A stretch of DNA of 64,000 nucleotides from Candidatus Syntrophocurvum alkaliphilum (GTDB lineage: Bacteria > Bacillota > Syntrophomonadia > Syntrophomonadales > Syntrophomonadaceae). Below are positions 24,568 through 32,869 of this stretch, one piece after another. How positions within the stretch are numbered: the stretch's first letter is position 1; each line of letters starts with the position of its first letter. The DNA lies in assembly GCF_009734445.1 (NCBI RefSeq), contig NZ_CP046457.1, forward strand, positions 434,001 through 498,000. The letters are read 5' to 3'. The notes under the pieces were generated by a model. It ran no database searches, had not been told where the DNA came from, and saw only the letters and a program-made list of their open reading frames with translations. The translations under genes and the position numbers were made by a program.

Positions 24568-24619
24568 TGCTTTAATTAGTGTAAAGTTTTAAAAATGAAA
24601 ATGTAAAGGAGGAATGAAC

Positions 24620-25375
24620 TTGAAGGTTCTAGTATGTGTTAAGCAAACATTTGACACAGAAGCCAAAATTGACTTGAAAGATGGCAAAATAGTAGATGCG
24701 GGTATCAATTTAATTATCAATCCTTATGATGAAGTTGCTGTAGAAGGTGCAATTCAACTAAAAGAAAAAAAGATAGCTAGTGAAGTAGTTATAGTTTCCG
24801 CAGGAGCAGACAAAGCTATGGATGCCATCCGTACAGCGTTAGCTATGGGTGCTGACAGAGGAATATTAGTAAAACAAGATACTTCTGCTGATGAATATGC
24901 AAGAGCAGTTGCATTAGCAGCAGCTATTAAAGAAGAGAATCCAGATTTAGTATTAGCGGGTCACGTTGCTGCTGATGATGGGTCATCTCAGGTTCCAACT
25001 CGTATGGCTGAAATTTTAGGCTTACCACATGTTAATGTTATTACTGATGTAGAAATAGCAGATGGAAAAGCTGTATGTACTAGTGAAGCTGATGGTGGAA
25101 CACAGGTAACTGAAGTAGCAATTCCAGCAGTTATTTCAAGTCAGGTAAGTTGGAATGAGCCACGCTACCCATCTATGAAAGGTATAATGCAGGCTAAGAA
25201 AAAGCCAGTTGCTACAGTAGATGCTGTAGAAACTGAAAATAAAACTACAATAGTTGAGTATAGCATGCCACCTGAAAAAGCTGCAGGTGTTAAGATAGAA
25301 GAAGAGCCAGAAGTAGCTGCTCAACAATTAGCAGATTGGATGTTAAATACTGCTAAAGTAGAAATTAAAAAATAA
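24620..25375 (+). CDS. etfB: Electron transfer flavoprotein, beta subunit
   Basis: About 251 residues. With EtfA it carries electrons from acyl-CoA dehydrogenases via FAD. I choose TTG 24620 because AAGGAGG ends 7 nt before it and the protein then reads KVLVCVKQTFDTEAKI, the usual EtfB start; ATG 24614 would leave only 1 nt after the RBS. Conserved ADDGSSQVPTRMAEILGLP and NEPRYPSMKGIMQAKKK (family signature) are present. Its partner EtfA lies 31 nt downstream, followed by the ETF oxidoreductase. Confidence 0.95.
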   Translation: MKVLVCVKQTFDTEAKIDLKDGKIVDAGINLIINPYDEVAVEGAIQLKEKKIASEVVIVSAGADKAMDAIRTALAMGADRGILVKQDTSADEYARAVALAAAIKEENPDLVLAGHVAADDGSSQVPTRMAEILGLPHVNVITDVEIADGKAVCTSEADGGTQVTEVAIPAVISSQVSWNEPRYPSMKGIMQAKKKPVATVDAVETENKTTIVEYSMPPEKAAGVKIEEEPEVAAQQLADWMLNTAKVEIKK

Positions 25376-25406
25376 ATATTTTATAAAATATAAAGGAGGG
25401 TAATTA

Positions 25407-26360
25407 ATGGCAGGAACATGGGTATTTGTTGAACAAAGAGACGGAAATATCCGTAAAGTTACCTTTGAAATGCTCTCAGAAGCCAAAAAATTTGGTGATG
25501 AAGTAAGTGCTGTTGTTTTTGGAAAAGGCGTAGAAGGATTAGCTCCTGAGTTTGCTAAATATGGAGCGGACAAGGTATATGTTGCGGATGATGACATTTT
25601 TGCTAACTATAACACAGGTGCATATGTTGCACAGTTAGTTGCAATGATAAATGAAAATAATCCAAATGCTATATTATTTGCTCATACATTTAATGGCAGA
25701 GATTTAGCATCTAGATTAGCTCAAAAGTTAGAAATAGGACTTGCAACTGATGTTGTCGGTGTAGAATTAAGTGCTGGAAAAGGTTTATTTACCAGACCAA
25801 TCTATGCTGGTAAAGCATTATCAAAAGTAGAAATTACAACTGGTCCAATATTAGGAACAATTCGTCCTGGTGTATTTGATGTTGCTGAAGCTGCTGGAGC
25901 TGGTGAAGTTGTAAAACCTGCTGTAGCTGCATCAGATGCTGATGTATATCAGACTGTTAAAGAATTTGTGCCAACTGTATCAGCTAGACCTGAACTTACA
26001 GAAGCTGAAGCTGTTGTATCAGGTGGACGTGGTCTAAAAGGTCCAGATGGTGTTAAGCTTATTGAAGACTTAGCTGACCTTCTAGATGCTGCAATAGGTG
26101 GTTCACGTGCATCAATCGACTCTGGTTGGTTAGGACATGAATTACAAGTAGGACAAACAGGTAAGGTAGTTAATCCCAATATTTATGTAGCTGCGGGAAT
26201 TTCAGGTGCTATTCAGCATCTAGCCGGTATGTCCTCTTCTAAAAACATTGTTTCAATTAACACAGATCCAGAAGCTCCAATATTCAACATTACAGATTTT
26301 GGAGTAGTAGGTGATCTATTCAAGGTAATACCACCATTATTAGATGAGCTTAAGAAGTAG
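25407..26360 (+). CDS. etfA: Electron transfer flavoprotein, alpha subunit
   Basis: 317 residues. The C-terminal FAD-binding domain has SGGRGLKGPDGVKL, ASIDSGWLGHELQVGQTGK, YVAAGISGAIQHLAGM and INTDPEAPIFNITDFG, all standard for EtfA. The N-terminal domain pairs with EtfB. Located between etfB and the membrane Fe-S oxidoreductase, so it most likely delivers electrons to the quinone pool rather than acting in electron bifurcation, although sequence alone does not exclude bifurcation. Confidence 0.96.
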   Translation: MAGTWVFVEQRDGNIRKVTFEMLSEAKKFGDEVSAVVFGKGVEGLAPEFAKYGADKVYVADDDIFANYNTGAYVAQLVAMINENNPNAILFAHTFNGRDLASRLAQKLEIGLATDVVGVELSAGKGLFTRPIYAGKALSKVEITTGPILGTIRPGVFDVAEAAGAGEVVKPAVAASDADVYQTVKEFVPTVSARPELTEAEAVVSGGRGLKGPDGVKLIEDLADLLDAAIGGSRASIDSGWLGHELQVGQTGKVVNPNIYVAAGISGAIQHLAGMSSSKNIVSINTDPEAPIFNITDFGVVGDLFKVIPPLLDELKK

Positions 26361-26449
26361 CTTGCCGGGGATGTGGCAAATACTGGATATGCATTAGAGT
26401 GCATGTCCAGTGTTTAGTCATGTTTAAGTTTAAAGGGAGGGTAATTTGA

Positions 26450-28591
26450 ATGATAGAATTTCTCAGTAAATACACAGAATTTCAAGTTTATGATATCCCT
26501 CAGCGTGTTGTTGGAGCCAATATTCCTTTTGAAAAGCTTATCTATGTAATTATGCTTATTCCTTTGGCTGTTTTAGCATTTGGTATTTATCGTTGGGTTA
26601 GTGTATGGATGATAGCTAAAGGAGAAATAAACAGATTTGATAATATTGGTCAACGTGTTGTATCGCTTGTAGCAAATGCCGCAGGTCAATTGAGGGTAAT
26701 TAAAAATCCTGTAGCTGGAGCCATGCACTTTATACTATTCTGGGGCTTTATTATATTATTTTTAGCTGCAGGTCTTGATGCACAACATTATTGGCTTGGA
26801 TGGCCTCCATTATATGACAATATTTATATTGGATTCCAAGCTATTGTTGATATAGCAGGGTTATTAGCTATTATAGGTATAATAGGTTTAGCAATTGTTA
26901 GATATGTAATTAAACCTGATAGATTAAATGATACTAATCCACTAGATGGTATATTACTAGCATTATTATTAGTTATACTTGCATCTGGTTATCTAATTGA
27001 AGGACTAAGAGTAGCTGCTCAAATTCAATTAGCTACACAAATTGAGTATATTGCTTATGAACAACTTGCTTCTCCTGTTGGATGGTATGTTGCACTATTA
27101 TTTACTGGATTAACACAAGAAACATTATTATTATGGCATCGTATTATTTGGTGGGCTCATATGATACTTGCATTTGGTGTAGTATGTATGATTCCATTTA
27201 CTAAGTTAAGACACATGGGAGTAGCACTTGTACAATATTTCGCACGTAATATGGAAGCTTCAGAAATTCGTATGTTGCATAATATCGAAGAAGCAGAAAC
27301 ATTTGGTGTAGAAAATATTGAAGAGTTCACATGGAAAGACTTAGTTGATTTAGATGCTTGTATTCGTTGTGGTAGATGTCAAGAAAACTGTCCAGCATAT
27401 AATACAGGAAAAGCATTAAATCCAAAACTAACTCTAATACAAAAAATGAGAGAGCATATGCACGAAAAAGCTCCATATGTAATAGCGAATCAAGGTCATG
27501 AAGAAGATGTTGAAATGATGGCTATGACAGATGAGGCAGAAGAAGCAGTTAGCCCAATGGAACAGAGCTTACTATATGATGTAGTAACAACTGATGTGAT
27601 ATGGGATTGTACTAACTGTCGTGCATGTATGGAACATTGCCCAATGTTTATTGAGCATATTCCAAAGATTGTTGAAATGCGCAGAAACCTTGTTATGTGG
27701 CAAGGAGATATGCCTAATGAAGCACAAATGGCCTTTACAAATATGGAACGTAACTATAACCCATGGGGTGTAGGTTGGGCAAACCGTGCTGATTGGTTGA
27801 ATGAAAGAGAAGTAAGAGATTTAGTTAATCTTGTACCTGAAGATGGTAAAGAATTTGAATATCTTCTTTATGCTGGTTGTGCAGTTTCATTCGACGACAG
27901 ATTCAAGAAGGTTGGAGAATCATTAGTAAGACTACTTGATCAAGCTGGAGTATCCTTTGGATATTTAGGAACTGAAGAATATTGCTGTGGAGACTCAGCT
28001 AGAAGACTTGGTAATGAATATCTATACCAAATCTTAGCACAACAAAATATTGATTCCTTTAATAATTATGGTGTTAAAAAGATAATAGTTGTTTGTCCAC
28101 ATGGATATACTACTCTTAAGAATGAATATCCTCAAATGGATGGAAACTATGAAGTATATCATTACACTGAAATACTTGCTCAATTAGTTGCAGAAGGCAA
28201 ACTAAGTGGAGGAAAATCATTAGGAATTAACCTAACCTATCATGATTCATGTTTCTTAGGCAGACACAATAACATTTATGATGCTCCAAGAAATGTGCTT
28301 AAAGCTGCAGGCGGTAATGTAATAGAAATAGATCAAGGTAAAGATTTAGGCTTCTGCTGTGGAGCCGGTGGAGGACGCATGTGGATGGAAGAAGATGCAG
28401 TTGAAGGATTTAAGCGTATCAATGATACTAGAACTGATCAACTTCTAAAACCTGCCCCTGAAATGATAGTTACCAACTGTCCGTTCTGCTTAACAATGAT
28501 AGATGATGGTGTAAAAGGTGCAGAAGAAGAAGCACAAACTAAGGTACTTGACGTTGCTGAAGTGCTTTGGGATTCAATGAAAAAAGAATAA
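26450..28591 (+). CDS. Membrane-bound ETF:menaquinone oxidoreductase (Fe-S/CCG, cytochrome-b-like)
   Basis: 713 residues. The N-terminal 270 residues have about five or six membrane helices with His residues in NPVAGAMHFILFWGF and LLLWHRIIWWAHMI that may ligate heme b, as in NarI-like domains. Then come two 4Fe-4S motifs (CIRCGRCQENCPAYN, CTNCRACMEHCP) and two CCG domains (EYCCGDSARR, GFCCGAGGGRMW). Such proteins beside etfBA are known as EMO, which passes electrons from reduced ETF to menaquinone; in Syntrophomonas-type organisms this supports acyl-CoA oxidation. A terminator follows. The family assignment is strong; the direction of electron flow is inferred. Confidence 0.92.
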   Translation: MIEFLSKYTEFQVYDIPQRVVGANIPFEKLIYVIMLIPLAVLAFGIYRWVSVWMIAKGEINRFDNIGQRVVSLVANAAGQLRVIKNPVAGAMHFILFWGFIILFLAAGLDAQHYWLGWPPLYDNIYIGFQAIVDIAGLLAIIGIIGLAIVRYVIKPDRLNDTNPLDGILLALLLVILASGYLIEGLRVAAQIQLATQIEYIAYEQLASPVGWYVALLFTGLTQETLLLWHRIIWWAHMILAFGVVCMIPFTKLRHMGVALVQYFARNMEASEIRMLHNIEEAETFGVENIEEFTWKDLVDLDACIRCGRCQENCPAYNTGKALNPKLTLIQKMREHMHEKAPYVIANQGHEEDVEMMAMTDEAEEAVSPMEQSLLYDVVTTDVIWDCTNCRACMEHCPMFIEHIPKIVEMRRNLVMWQGDMPNEAQMAFTNMERNYNPWGVGWANRADWLNEREVRDLVNLVPEDGKEFEYLLYAGCAVSFDDRFKKVGESLVRLLDQAGVSFGYLGTEEYCCGDSARRLGNEYLYQILAQQNIDSFNNYGVKKIIVVCPHGYTTLKNEYPQMDGNYEVYHYTEILAQLVAEGKLSGGKSLGINLTYHDSCFLGRHNNIYDAPRNVLKAAGGNVIEIDQGKDLGFCCGAGGGRMWMEEDAVEGFKRINDTRTDQLLKPAPEMIVTNCPFCLTMIDDGVKGAEEEAQTKVLDVAEVLWDSMKKE

Positions 28592-28599
28592 TTTAAGTT

Positions 28600-28637
28600 A
28601 AAAAAAGACCCACTTTACAGTGGGTCTTTTTTTTTGT
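28600..28637 (+). terminator. Rho-independent terminator after the ETF oxidoreductase
   Basis: AAAAAAGACCCACT and AGTGGGTCTTTTTT form a stem with a TTAC loop, followed by a T-run to 28636. The next genes therefore have their own promoter. Confidence 0.93.
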
Positions 28638-28704
28638 GTCTAAAAAATCAATAATAAGAAATATATGTAAAAAAGAAGGAATTTTATAACAAATAAAGAA
28701 TAGA

Positions 28705-28733
28705 TTGTAATATAATTAAATTACGCTTATAGT
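28705..28733 (+). promoter_or_regulatory. Probable promoter of the thiolase/acyl-CoA dehydrogenase pair
   Basis: TTGTAA (28705-28710), 17-nt spacer, TATAGT (28728-28733). It lies downstream of a strong terminator and about 125 nt before the thiolase start. Confidence 0.5.
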
Positions 28734-28744
28734 GAACGAATTTT

Positions 28745-28776
28745 GTCAGAACTTATTATAAATGTGATGTTCTGAC
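28745..28776. promoter_or_regulatory. Inverted repeat, possible operator before the thiolase gene
   Basis: GTCAGAAC (28745-28752) and GTTCTGAC (28769-28776) are perfect 8-bp inverted arms 16 nt apart, placed just after the probable promoter. A repressor site or an RNA hairpin are both possible. Confidence 0.45.
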
Positions 28777-28855
28777 TACGGGAGGTGGATAAACGTTAAT
28801 AACGAGAGTTAATATTGAATAATTAATATAAAAATATATTAGGGGGTTAATTTAA

Positions 28856-30037
28856 ATGACTAAAGAAGTAGTTTTGGTTGGTGCATGTAGAACACCTGTA
28901 GGATCATTTGGTGGCACATTAAAAGACGTAAGTGCTGTAGAACTAGGAAAAGTAGTAATGGAAGACAGTTTAAAACGAGTTGGATTAAAACCAGATCAAT
29001 TAGATGAAGTAATATTCGGATGTGTATTACAAGCTGGTCAAGGTCAGAACGTGGCTCGTCAAGCCTCTATTCATGCTGGTATACCGGAAACCGTTCCAGC
29101 ATATACAATCAATAAAGTTTGTGGTTCAGGACTAAAGTCAATTAGTATAGCTGCACAAGCTATAAAAGCAGGTGATGCAGATGTTATTCTTGCAGGTGGA
29201 ACTGAGAATATGTCACTTGCTCCTTATGCACTAGAAAAGGCACGTTATGGATATAGAATGGGACCTGGAAAAATAGAAGACTTAATGATAAAAGATGGTT
29301 TATGGGAAGCTTTTAATAATTATCATATGGGAATAACTGCAGAAAATATAGTAGACGAGTGGAATATATCTCGTGAAGAACAAGATGCTTTTGCTTTTAG
29401 AAGTCAAGATCTTGCTGCTAAAGCGATAGAGGAAGATAAATTTAAAGATGAAATAGTACCAGTGGTAATTAAGACTAGAAAAGGTGAAACAGTTTTTGAC
29501 AAAGATGAACATCCTAACTTAGCACCACAGGAGAAGTTAGCCAAAATGAGACCAGCCTTTAAAAAAGATGGTTCTGTTACAGCTGGAAATGCCTCTGGAA
29601 TAAACGATGGTGCAGCAGCAGTAATAGTTATGTCTAAAGAAAAAGCAGACGAACTTGGCTTAGAGCCTTTAGCTACAATTTCAAGTTATGCATCAGGTGG
29701 TATTGATCCTAAGATTATGGGTATTGGACCTGTTCCTGCTACTAAAAAGGCTTTAGATAAAGCAGGATTAAATATAGAAGATATAGATCTTATAGAAGCT
29801 AACGAAGCATTTGCAGCACAGTCTTTAGGAGTATCAAAAGAACTTGGTTTAGAAAAGGTTATGGATAGAGTAAACGTAAATGGTGGAGCAATAGCAATTG
29901 GACATCCAATCGGAGCATCAGGAACCAGAATATTAGTTTCACTTCTTTACGAAATGCAAAAGCGTGATTCAAAAACAGGTTTAGCTACTCTCTGTATTGG
30001 TGGAGGACAGGGTATAGCTATGGTAGTTTCAAGATAA
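28856..30037 (+). CDS. Acetyl-CoA acetyltransferase (thiolase)
   Basis: 393 residues. It condenses two acetyl-CoA or cleaves 3-ketoacyl-CoA. The nucleophilic Cys is in [37 protein letters not shown] and [10 protein letters not shown] are the other active-site regions. Length and motifs fit the biosynthetic/short-chain type. It lies 24 nt before an acyl-CoA dehydrogenase and next to the ETF cluster, so it probably serves butyryl-level beta-oxidation or its reverse. Genes for hydroxyacyl-CoA dehydrogenase and crotonase are not in the window. Confidence 0.95.
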
Positions 30038-30061
30038 ACATAAAATGAGGAGGATTTATAA

Positions 30062-31204
30062 ATGAATTTTAGATTATCAGAAGAACATGAAATGTTTAGA
30101 AAAACATTTAGAGATTTTGCAGAAGGAGAAATAGAACCATCAGCTGCTGAACGTGATGAAGAAGAAAGATTTGATATGGATCTATTCCGCAAAATGGCTG
30201 ATTTAGGCATGTGTGGATTACCGTGGGGAGAAGAGTACGGAGGAGTAGGATCTGACTTTCTAACTTATGTATTAGCGGTAGAAGAGCTTTCAAGAGTTTG
30301 CGGTTCTATGGGTGTTACTTTATCAGCTCACGTATCACTAGCTTCATGGCCAATTTGGAAATTTGGTACAGAAGAACAGAAACAAAAATATCTAGTGCCA
30401 TTAGCTGAAGGGACTAAAATGGGGGCATTTGCAATTACTGAACCAACGGCTGGTAGTGATGCAGGTGGAACAAAAACAACTGCAGTACTAGATGGTGATG
30501 AATATGTCTTAAATGGAACCAAAGTATTTATAACAAATGCTTATTATGCTGAAACTTATGTTGTAATAGCTAGGACAGGACCTAAGGATCTTGGACATAA
30601 GAGTATAAGTGCATTTATAGTTGAAAAAGATACTCCTGGCTTTAGCTTTGGTAAAAAAGAGGATAAGCTAGGTATAAGATCATCAGCTACCTATGAGTTA
30701 GTATTCGAAAACTGCCGCATTCCAAAGGAAAACCTTCTTGGTAAAGAAGGAGATGGATTTAAAATTGGTATGATGATCCTAGATGGTGGAAGAAACGGAA
30801 TTGCTGCTCAAGCAGTTGGAATAGCTCAAGGAGCATATGAATTTGCACTTAACTATTCAAAAGATAGAGTTCAATTTGGAAAACCAATATCTAAACAACA
30901 GGCTATCCAATTCAAATTAGCTGATATGGCAACACAAATAGAAGCTGCAAGATTATTAACCTATCAAGCGGCTTGGTTAGAAAGTCAAGGATTGCCATAT
31001 GGTAAAGAAAGTGCAATGGCAAAACTGTACGCGGGTGATGCTGCAATGGCAGTAACAACAGAAGCAGTACAGGTATTAGGAGGATATGGTTATTCTAGAG
31101 AATATCCAGTTGAAAGAATGATGAGAGATGCTAAGATTACACAAATTTATGAAGGTACAAATGAAATTCAACGTGTAGTTATAGCAAGCAATATTTTAAA
31201 GTAA
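30062..31204 (+). CDS. Short-chain acyl-CoA dehydrogenase (butyryl-CoA dehydrogenase type)
   Basis: 380 residues. An FAD enzyme that passes electrons to ETF. Substrate/FAD motifs [15 protein letters not shown] and [12 protein letters not shown], then [20 protein letters not shown] and [14 protein letters not shown], which carries the catalytic Glu. Downstream of a thiolase and close to etfBA and the ETF:quinone oxidoreductase, suggesting crotonyl/butyryl-CoA chemistry. The exact chain-length preference is not readable. Confidence 0.95.
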
Positions 31205-31266
31205 ACATTACTTTAAATTAAACTAATAAAAAAAAGGTAATATTATCTTTTCATATAGCTGAAAAT

Positions 31267-31295
31267 AAAAACACAGAAGAATATTCTGTGTTTTT
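31267..31295 (+). terminator. Rho-independent terminator after the acyl-CoA dehydrogenase
   Basis: AAAACACAGAA pairs with TTCTGTGTTTT around a short AT-rich loop, ending in TTTTT (31291-31295) and more T. Confidence 0.9.
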
Positions 31296-31405
31296 ATTTT
31301 TATTTAAAAAATAATTAAATTGCAGGATAAAACAAAGTTTGAGTAGAATTTTTTTATATTTGATATTGTAATAGATTTAATAAAACCAAAGGGGCGGATG
31401 TAATA

Positions 31406-31891
31406 ATGAAAGTAGCAGTGTATCCAGGAAGCTTTGATCCTATAACAAATGGGCATATTGATATTCTTAATAAAACTAGTAAGCTATTTGATAAAATAAT
31501 TGTTTCAGTTGTACATAATGTTACAAAAAATGCCCTGTTTTCTCTTGAAGAACGGGTTGAAATGATCAAAGAAAGTACAAATCATATGGATAATATTGAA
31601 GTAGATTCATTCAATGGATTATTGTCTAATTATTTACAAGAGAAACAAGCTATAGCTATAATTAGAGGTTTGAGAACGGTTAGTGATTTTGAATATGAAA
31701 TGCATATGTCGATGATGAATAAAATGTTAATTCCTGAGGTAGATACGATATTTATTATGTCTGATAGTAAAAACATTTATGTTAGTTCTAGTGGTATAAA
31801 AGAGGCTGCACTACTTGGTGGGGATATTAGTTCATTAGTACCGAAAGCAGTTAATATGAGGCTAGGAGAAAAAATAAAAAAAAATGATTAA
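31406..31891 (+). CDS. coaD: Phosphopantetheine adenylyltransferase
   Basis: 161 residues. It adenylates 4'-phosphopantetheine in coenzyme A synthesis. YPGSFDPITNGHIDIL holds the nucleotidyltransferase T/HxGH motif; AIIRGLRTVSDFEYE and YVSSSGIKEAALLGGDIS are family signatures. In many Firmicutes coaD follows rsmD, but here it stands apart from rsmD (42401) and is followed by a chemoreceptor-like fusion. Confidence 0.97.
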   Translation: MKVAVYPGSFDPITNGHIDILNKTSKLFDKIIVSVVHNVTKNALFSLEERVEMIKESTNHMDNIEVDSFNGLLSNYLQEKQAIAIIRGLRTVSDFEYEMHMSMMNKMLIPEVDTIFIMSDSKNIYVSSSGIKEAALLGGDISSLVPKAVNMRLGEKIKKND

Positions 31892-31921: not shown

Positions 31922-32779
31922 GTGAAAAGAATAGTTATTGTAGGTGCAGGTCAAGGAGGAACATCCATACTTAAATCATGCTTAGGAATAGAAAGTATAA
32001 AAATCGAAGGGATCTGTGATGCAAATTATGATGCACCTGGAATGGTAATAGCAAGAGAGAATAATGTGAAAACATTTTCAGATGTAGTGCAAGCAATTTC
32101 CTTACCTGGGATTAATGTAATTATAGAGGCAACAGGTAATGCTAAAGTAGAAGAAATTATAAATGAAAATAAAAGGGATGAAATTGCAGTAATTGATTCT
32201 CATGGTGCTGATGTAATGATGACAGTAGTTGAATCTAGAGAAGCAATGATAGAAACGTTACATAATGAATCAGAGAAGTTAGCTAATATTTCAATTGAAC
32301 TTGCAGATACTATGGAAAATGTAACTAATAGGATTGAAGAGGTTAATAATTCGGCTAAATTAATGGCATCAAGAGGAAATAATTTAATAGATTCTGCTAA
32401 TGATGCTACAGAACATCTTAATGAAACAGGGGAAGTTTTAGATTTTATAAATACTATTGCAAAACAAACTAAACTTTTAGGACTAAATGCAGCTATTGAG
32501 GCTGCTAGGAGTGGGGAGCACGGAAAAGGTTTTGCTGTTGTAGCGGAGGAAGTACGGAAACTAGCCGAAAACAGCACATTATCAGTTGAAAGAATTTCAC
32601 AAATACTTAATAATATAGAAGAGTCAGTAAAAGTTATTACAACAGGTGTGAATGAAGCGGCATCAATAGTGGAAAATCAAGCGGAATTGACACAGACAGT
32701 TTCAACTAATGTTCAAGAGCTAGAAGCAATGTCTGAAGAATTGTCTTCATTAGCTCAGCATCTTGCCAGCTTAAGCTAA
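31922..32779 (+). CDS. Soluble fusion of a Rossmann NAD-binding domain with a chemoreceptor signalling domain
   Basis: 285 residues with no membrane segment. Residues 1-110 look like a dinucleotide-binding domain: [14 protein letters not shown] (GxGxxG), acidic ICDANYD after strand 2, and [14 protein letters not shown]. No catalytic domain follows; instead a helical linker leads into the methyl-accepting signalling tip, [19 protein letters not shown] and [15 protein letters not shown] (residues 185-218). This would be a cytoplasmic receptor that couples CheA/CheW to an intracellular ligand, perhaps NAD(H). GTG start behind a G-rich site. It is probably cotranscribed with coaD. I know no characterised member of this architecture. 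Confidence 0.8.
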
Positions 32780-32838: not shown

Positions 32839-32869
32839 CGGAATTATGGAGGGAGTATCCATAATTCCG
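32839..32869. other. Hairpin between convergent genes
   Basis: CGGAATTATGGA (32839-32850) pairs perfectly with TCCATAATTCCG (32858-32869). No strong T-run follows on either strand, so a terminator role is uncertain. It lies between the chemoreceptor-like gene and the converging 3D-domain gene. Confidence 0.55.

What the first reader, a model, noticed from the sequence alone, without database searches (positions are those of the whole stretch)
31922..32779. Cytoplasmic chemoreceptor that may read a nucleotide cofactor
A GxGxxG Rossmann domain is joined directly to a methyl-accepting signalling hairpin with no membrane helix and no catalytic domain. This would allow CheA control by intracellular NAD(H) or a metabolite bound in the Rossmann pocket. 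It is probably cotranscribed with coaD (CoA synthesis), which hints at metabolic sensing.
Basis: partly seen in the sequence, partly recalled or inferred. Interest (0 to 1): 0.6.

Follow-up and report, generated by a model that had tools for sequence, protein, structure and literature searches.

The report
Soluble chemoreceptor with Rossmann sensor domain
A bacterium from a family of fermenters that live with partner microbes encodes a membrane-free chemotaxis receptor whose sensing part looks like an NAD-binding domain, and the same sensing part also sits on gene activators next to acyl-CoA, propionate and branched-chain amino-acid operons, so one internal metabolic signal may steer both swimming and gene expression.

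Summary
Window 31922-32776 encodes 285 residues: a compact Rossmann-type domain (about residues 1-92, GAGQGG, Asp33, EATG) that runs directly into a two-helix MCP signalling hairpin, with no membrane helix and no catalytic domain. The AlphaFold2 model has mean pLDDT 90; the hairpin matches B. subtilis YfmS and the N-domain matches the NAD-binding domain of acylating acetaldehyde dehydrogenase. The coaD neighbour is real but found beside none of 20 relatives, so it is no clue. The larger result is that the N-domain is a reused input module, with no dedicated family in Pfam or NCBIfam. It was found in 92 of 299 sampled genomes of the phylum, on short MCPs, Cache-type soluble MCPs, sigma-54 activators, PAS-HTH proteins and a hybrid kinase. 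Of 30 sigma-54 loci examined, 25 sit beside propionate/C4-acid, branched-chain keto-acid (BkdR position) or 2-oxoacid:ferredoxin oxidoreductase operons. Gly8, Gly13, Asp33 and Thr71 are kept in at least 107 of 109 members across output types. Best explanation: a cytosolic receptor that reads NAD(H), hence intracellular redox, and tunes CheA. The anatomy is well supported; the ligand is inferred and unproven. A new variant of a known kind.

The parts
31922..32197 (+). N-terminal Rossmann-type input domain, residues 1-92
   Evidence: AlphaFold2 secondary structure, pLDDT about 90; Foldseek to acylating acetaldehyde dehydrogenase 1nvm and 7z3s; profile E 3e-6 to 7z3s
31943..31960 (+). GAGQGG glycine motif, residues 8-13
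   Evidence: G8, G10, G13 kept in 108, 107, 107 of 109 members
32018..32020 (+). Asp33 at the end of strand 2, the position that usually holds the adenosine ribose in NAD-specific folds
   Evidence: D in 108 of 109 members across MCP and sigma-54 forms; strand 26-32 ends just before it
32126..32137 (+). EATG motif, residues 69-72, end of the third strand
   Evidence: T71 108 of 109, G72 103 of 109, E69 94 of 109
32198..32353 (+). helix leaving the Rossmann domain and continuing into the coiled coil (residues 93-144), with the conserved start A-x-x-MM
   Evidence: continuous helix 93-196; A96 kept in 91 of 109
32354..32767 (+). MCP signalling hairpin, residues 145-282
   Evidence: PF00015 E 3.4e-27; 0.8 A over 167 columns to YfmS 9a72
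32483..32509 (+). hairpin tip core LNAAIEAAR, residues 188-196, the region expected to contact CheA/CheW
   Evidence: near-invariant in alignment A1; turn between helices 93-196 and 198-284
31406..31891 (+). coaD, pantetheine-phosphate adenylyltransferase, probably cotranscribed here; association not conserved
   Evidence: TIGR01510 E 5e-57; 30-bp gap; absent next to 20 relatives
31262..31300 (+). perfect 17-nt inverted repeat ending in a T-rich arm, likely terminator of the upstream acyl-CoA gene set
32839..32869 (.). perfect 12-nt inverted repeat between this gene and the convergent downstream gene, possible terminator

Best explanation
The gene encodes a cytosolic chemoreceptor. Two subunits form the usual four-helix MCP bundle, and each carries at its free end a Rossmann domain that most likely binds NAD+ or NADH: glycine motif for the pyrophosphate, Asp33 for the adenosine ribose, EATG near the nicotinamide side. 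A change of bound form or occupancy would shift the helix that starts right after the last strand (residue 93), and the hairpin tip would pass this to CheA/CheW, so swimming follows the cell's redox or acyl-CoA oxidation state. Shown by computation: anatomy, absence of a membrane helix, conservation, reuse of the domain on other outputs, company of the related regulators. Inferred: ligand, direction of the response, control of CheA.
For: Fold and direct fusion. Nearest solved structures of the N-part are NAD-binding domains: acylating acetaldehyde dehydrogenases, Gfo/Idh/MocA enzymes. G8, G10, G13, D33, T71 almost invariant in 109 members with different outputs, which points to a conserved pocket rather than decay of an enzyme. 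Module on MCPs, sigma-54 activators, PAS-HTH proteins and a hybrid kinase, as expected of an input domain. 25 of 30 sigma-54 relatives stand beside propionate/C4-acid, branched-chain keto-acid or VorAB operons, all redox-linked acyl-CoA or organic-acid metabolism. The own genome has 9 MCPs and 7 CheW domains. In the window's family strong hits occur in 22 of 42 genomes with CheW and 1 of 12 without, Fisher p 0.008, not corrected for kinship.
Against: No ligand has been shown. Pfam gives no hit over its cut-off for the window's N-domain (GFO_IDH_MocA E 0.0086, below cut-off). Rossmann domains can bind CoA, SAM or nothing. The operon company fits an acyl-CoA or keto-acid ligand as well as NADH. 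The window gene itself is not inside such an operon: an inverted repeat separates it from the acyl-CoA gene set upstream. No strict methylation site was found. Classification of many members rests on short profiles built here.
Confidence: 0.5

Rival explanations
1. The Rossmann domain senses CoA or an acyl-CoA (or a related organic acid) rather than NAD(H), and the receptor reports substrate supply.
For: Related activators sit at bkd, sucCD-methylmalonyl-CoA mutase and fumarase/SDH operons; the nearest enzyme family, acylating acetaldehyde dehydrogenase, also uses CoA (own knowledge; structural match); coaD is adjacent in this genome.
Against: No hit to a CoA-binding family in Pfam. An acidic residue at the end of strand 2 is the NAD pattern. 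In the acetaldehyde dehydrogenase the CoA site involves parts outside this domain (own knowledge). coaD is not conserved beside relatives.
Confidence: 0.2
2. The domain is a ligand-free Rossmann scaffold that docks a metabolic enzyme, so the receptor reads protein contact.
For: Rossmann domains can lose ligands; proteins acting as mediators between enzymes and receptors are known for other chemotaxis systems (own knowledge).
Against: The conserved residues are those of the dinucleotide groove, the key ones kept in at least 107 of 109 members.
Confidence: 0.12
3. It is an ordinary orphan MCP in which the N-domain is a remnant enzyme without a sensing role.
For: Weak family scores; short hairpin unlike most other MCPs of the cell (98 against 166-167 residues from tip to end in seven of them).
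Against: Present in a third of sampled genomes with strict conservation and on several unrelated outputs; absent or rare where CheW is absent.
Confidence: 0.08

Closest known systems
Bacillus subtilis YfmS (soluble chemoreceptor, 286 aa; PDB 9a72 model with CheW)
   Same: Soluble, same length, superposable signalling hairpin (0.8 A over 167 columns, 32% identity).
   Different: The match stops at the hairpin. YfmS aligns over 273 columns to the Cache-type long relative L021 instead (low-confidence model), so its input domain seems not to be Rossmann.
BkdR, sigma-54 activator of the bkd operon in Bacillaceae
   Same: Proteins in the bkdR position upstream of ptb-bcd-buk-lpdV-bkdAA-bkdAB carry the same N-domain.
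   Different: Output is two PAS domains, AAA+ and HTH, not an MCP. The paper on B. thuringiensis EBPs lists only PAS/PAC in BkdR (PMC4428206). The B. subtilis BkdR sequence itself was not examined.
Regulator beside the mmc (methylmalonyl-CoA) cluster of propionate oxidisers
   Same: Ross-PAS-AAA-HTH proteins beside fumarase, SDH, malic enzyme, sucCD and methylmalonyl-CoA mutase, the kind of gene set described as mmc cluster in PMC11206085.
   Different: Identity with a named mmc regulator is from memory, not tested.
Rex, NADH/NAD+-sensing repressor
   Same: A Rossmann domain used as an intracellular redox sensor; weak profile similarity (NCBIfam E 7.6e-4; PDB E 0.013).
   Different: No winged helix, different output, not a homologue at the level of membership.
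Acylating acetaldehyde dehydrogenase (DmpF/PheF) NAD-binding domain
   Same: Best fold and profile match of the N-domain (1nvm, 7z3s).
   Different: No catalytic domain here; Asp33 is not shared at the aligned position (alignment).
Aer/Aer-2 and HemAT type energy and oxygen receptors
   Same: Cytosolic sensing of internal or redox state wired to CheA (own knowledge).
   Different: They use FAD or haem in PAS or globin domains, not a Rossmann domain.

Membership tests
Cytoplasmic chemoreceptor (MCP) | MCPsignal hairpin with conserved tip | tested here: met
   PF00015 E 3.4e-27, [23 protein letters not shown]
Cytoplasmic chemoreceptor (MCP) | no membrane helix | tested here: met
   hydropathy maximum 1.22 over 19 residues, in the Rossmann domain
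Cytoplasmic chemoreceptor (MCP) | chemotaxis partners in the same genome | tested here: met
   7 CheW-domain places, one in a 689-aa frame of CheA size; CheA domains and flagella not searched
Cytoplasmic chemoreceptor (MCP) | controls CheA activity | not testable with these tools
   needs biochemistry
Cytoplasmic chemoreceptor (MCP) | methylation sites | tested here: inconclusive
   no strict consensus, two relaxed motifs at 262 and 269; 42 of 60 short relatives have a relaxed motif
NAD-binding Rossmann domain | alternating strand-helix fold with glycine loop after strand 1 | tested here: met
NAD-binding Rossmann domain | acidic residue at the end of strand 2 | tested here: met
   D33, 108 of 109
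NAD-binding Rossmann domain | binds NAD(H) | not testable with these tools
   no binding assay possible
Gfo/Idh/MocA oxidoreductase (PF01408) | score over the curated cut-off | tested here: not met
   17.2 bits for the whole protein, 20.0 for the N-domain alone, against 24; some relatives pass, L021 36.2
Gfo/Idh/MocA oxidoreductase (PF01408) | catalytic C-terminal domain | tested here: not met
   hairpin follows directly
YfmS-like receptor | same signalling hairpin | tested here: met
   0.8 A over 167 columns
YfmS-like receptor | same input domain | tested here: inconclusive
Rex repressor | winged-helix DNA-binding domain joined to a Rossmann domain | tested here: not met
   no such domain

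The most novel reading that the evidence does not exclude
A so far undescribed portable redox-sensing domain, binding NAD(H), lets many anaerobic and some aerobic bacteria read one internal signal with two outputs: swimming through soluble chemoreceptors and transcription of acyl-CoA and C4-acid pathways through sigma-54 activators such as BkdR. In syntrophic bacteria, whose NADH level depends on a hydrogen-consuming partner, this would be a direct link between partner activity and motility.
Probability: 0.4. Interest if true: 0.78.

Novelty: new variant of a known kind. Interest (0 to 1): 0.6.

Why it matters
Known cytosolic energy receptors sense through FAD, haem or PAS domains. A receptor that reads a dinucleotide through a Rossmann domain would be a new sensory principle in chemotaxis. 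The same domain at the head of BkdR-type and propionate/C4-operon activators gives a testable candidate signal for regulators whose N-terminal part has been passed over, and it makes the question of how syntrophs sense their partners directly testable.

Tried and rejected
coaD as a functional clue: adjacent here, but found near none of 20 relatives. YfmS identity: hairpin only; the two papers read do not describe its N-domain. A first genome-contig scan with the single protein found no relative, and the diverse N-domain alignment had no stretch conserved enough to search; a closer alignment worked. The rows of that scan from L064 on, except L072, look like homoserine-dehydrogenase-like enzymes, nearly all from Proteobacteria, judged from the three that were read (L064, L065, L089); those three were left out of the conservation and tree sets, as was the weak match L189. 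Literature searches for a Rossmann chemoreceptor or a sigma-54 regulator with such a domain found nothing; only open-access PMC text was searched. The tree of the N-domain has too few columns for deep forks; output type clusters strongly, with 8 changes where 3 is the minimum and shuffles give 45, so swaps of output were few. The fold of the long Cache-type receptor is of low confidence (pLDDT 68), so its Cache assignment is tentative.

Full report
Observation. The open reading frame lies exactly where stated (31922-32779, GTG start, G-rich ribosome-binding site just upstream). It has 285 residues. PF00015 (MCPsignal) covers residues 145-282 at E 3.4e-27. AlphaFold2 on an alignment of 19 relatives gives mean pLDDT 90 and the order strand, helix, strand, helix, helix, strand, helix, strand, then helices 93-196 and 198-284. 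The first part is a four-stranded Rossmann-type unit and the second the antiparallel hairpin of a chemoreceptor; the long helix starts right after the last strand, so there is no catalytic domain. Hydropathy shows no membrane helix.

What the N-domain resembles. Pfam gives only a sub-threshold GFO_IDH_MocA match. Structure search puts the N-part next to the NAD-binding domain of acylating acetaldehyde dehydrogenases (1nvm, 7z3s) and Gfo/Idh/MocA enzymes. A profile of 17 N-domains finds the same dehydrogenases at E 3e-6 to 5e-5, and Rex at 0.013. A profile comparison with a proteobacterial oxidoreductase (L065) gives 97% probability over the shared GAGK...ADLNP...IEATGNP pattern.

A portable module. 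The N-domain alone matches 92 of 299 genomes of the phylum at E <= 0.001, 83 of 267 among good assemblies. I collected 117 sequences and sorted them with small profiles built from this set: 60 short Ross-MCPs like the window's, 15 long MCPs of about 490 residues, 28 sigma-54 activators (18 of the one-PAS size class, 10 with two PAS), and 14 others. Two caveats within the 18: L189 is a doubtful match and L059 has no PAS. Among the 14 others are 5 Ross-PAS-HTH proteins without AAA+ (read from sequence) and L072, a Ross-GAF-PAS-kinase-receiver-GGDEF protein; L186 looks like a sensor kinase, and 3 are plain enzymes. Pfam scans confirmed the architectures on examples. Hits outside the phylum carry the titles Nitrospira and Saprospiraceae, both metagenome bins.

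Conservation. In 109 aligned N-domains G8, G10, G13, D33, T71 and G72 are kept in 108, 107, 107, 108, 108 and 103, irrespective of output. The window protein has all of them. This is the glycine loop, the acidic residue after strand 2 and the loop after strand 3, which is the dinucleotide groove. From established knowledge of the fold, an acidic residue there favours NAD(H) over NADP(H). This step is inference.

Company of the module. Of 30 sigma-54-type loci examined, 12 stand beside fumarase, succinate dehydrogenase, malic enzyme, succinyl-CoA ligase or methylmalonyl-CoA mutase, 12 beside genes of the bkd operon (most with the full ptb-bcd-buk-lpdV-bkdAA-bkdAB order), and 1 beside VorAB with a leucine-dehydrogenase-like gene. 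Five have other neighbours (several names by NCBIfam). The two-PAS proteins of Bacillaceae in this position are BkdR by synteny. A paper on B. thuringiensis describes BkdR as having two PAS/PAC domains and no other input (PMC4428206), and a survey of Clostridiales activators lists no Rossmann input domain in the passages I found (PMC6615313).

The window gene itself. coaD lies 30 bp upstream (TIGR01510), and inverted repeats flank the pair, so the two are probably cotranscribed here. In 20 relatives coaD is not near. Upstream of coaD, beyond an inverted repeat, is a gene set for acyl-CoA oxidation: EtfA, a large iron-sulfur oxidoreductase, a thiolase and an acyl-CoA dehydrogenase; EtfB is named from its place and sequence only. 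This company is suggestive but is one case.

Chemotaxis side. The genome has 9 MCPs over the cut-off and 7 CheW-domain places. The window receptor measures 98 residues from tip to C-end, against 166-167 in seven others, so it is a short soluble type; the hairpin superposes on YfmS at 0.8 A. In the window's taxonomic family strong module hits, of MCP size by open frame, occur in 22 of 42 genomes with CheW and 1 of 12 without (p 0.008, kinship not corrected).

Evolution. On the N-domain tree the long MCPs form one group, and the window protein sits with short MCPs of its family, including a Syntrophomonas isolate. Changes of output are few (8 in all, least possible 3, shuffled mean 45). Output swaps happened, but rarely; deep forks are unresolved.

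Mechanism. Shown: anatomy, solubility, conservation, reuse, neighbours. Inferred: NAD(H) as ligand (about 0.5), transmission through the helix at residue 93, control of CheA, and a role in redox-guided swimming. Rivals: acyl-CoA or organic acid ligand (0.2), protein docking (0.12), no sensing role (0.08).

Verdict. The finding is best seen as one member of an overlooked input-domain family that links soluble chemoreceptors with regulators of acyl-CoA, propionate and branched-chain acid metabolism: a new variant of a known kind.

Noticed in passing
L048, L051, L055, L056, L058, L060, L061, L063, L126, L127: BkdR-position sigma-54 activators, most of them in named Bacillaceae, carry the same N-terminal Rossmann module upstream of the bkd operon, an input domain not listed for BkdR in the paper read.
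   Followed up: yes
L110-L112, L114-L116, L118, L121-L125: Ross-PAS-sigma-54 activators stand beside fumarase/SDH/malic enzyme or sucCD-methylmalonyl-CoA mutase operons, probably the regulator of the mmc propionate pathway.
   Followed up: partly
L182, L184, L185, L187, L188: Ross-PAS-HTH proteins of about 300 aa that keep the N- and C-ends of the activator but lack the AAA+ domain entirely; how they act is unclear.
   Followed up: no
L021, L022, L036, L038, L044 and 10 more: Long soluble receptors with a Rossmann domain, a Cache-like middle part and an MCP hairpin, up to four copies per genome (G147, G287).
   Followed up: partly
L072 10001-13297: Ross-GAF-PAS-histidine kinase-receiver-GGDEF protein: the module heads a c-di-GMP type output.
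   Followed up: no
L113, L120, L129: Three Ross-sigma-54 activators lie beside sodium-symporter-like genes, two of them also beside dihydrodipicolinate-synthase-like genes; a further regulon type, perhaps amino-acid use.
   Followed up: no
window 24614-31204: Acyl-CoA oxidation gene set (EtfBA, large iron-sulfur oxidoreductase, thiolase, acyl-CoA dehydrogenase) directly upstream of coaD and the receptor, separated by an inverted repeat.
   Followed up: partly
G061:C27:184244-184598: A split copy of the module in two pieces, apparently a broken gene.
   Followed up: no
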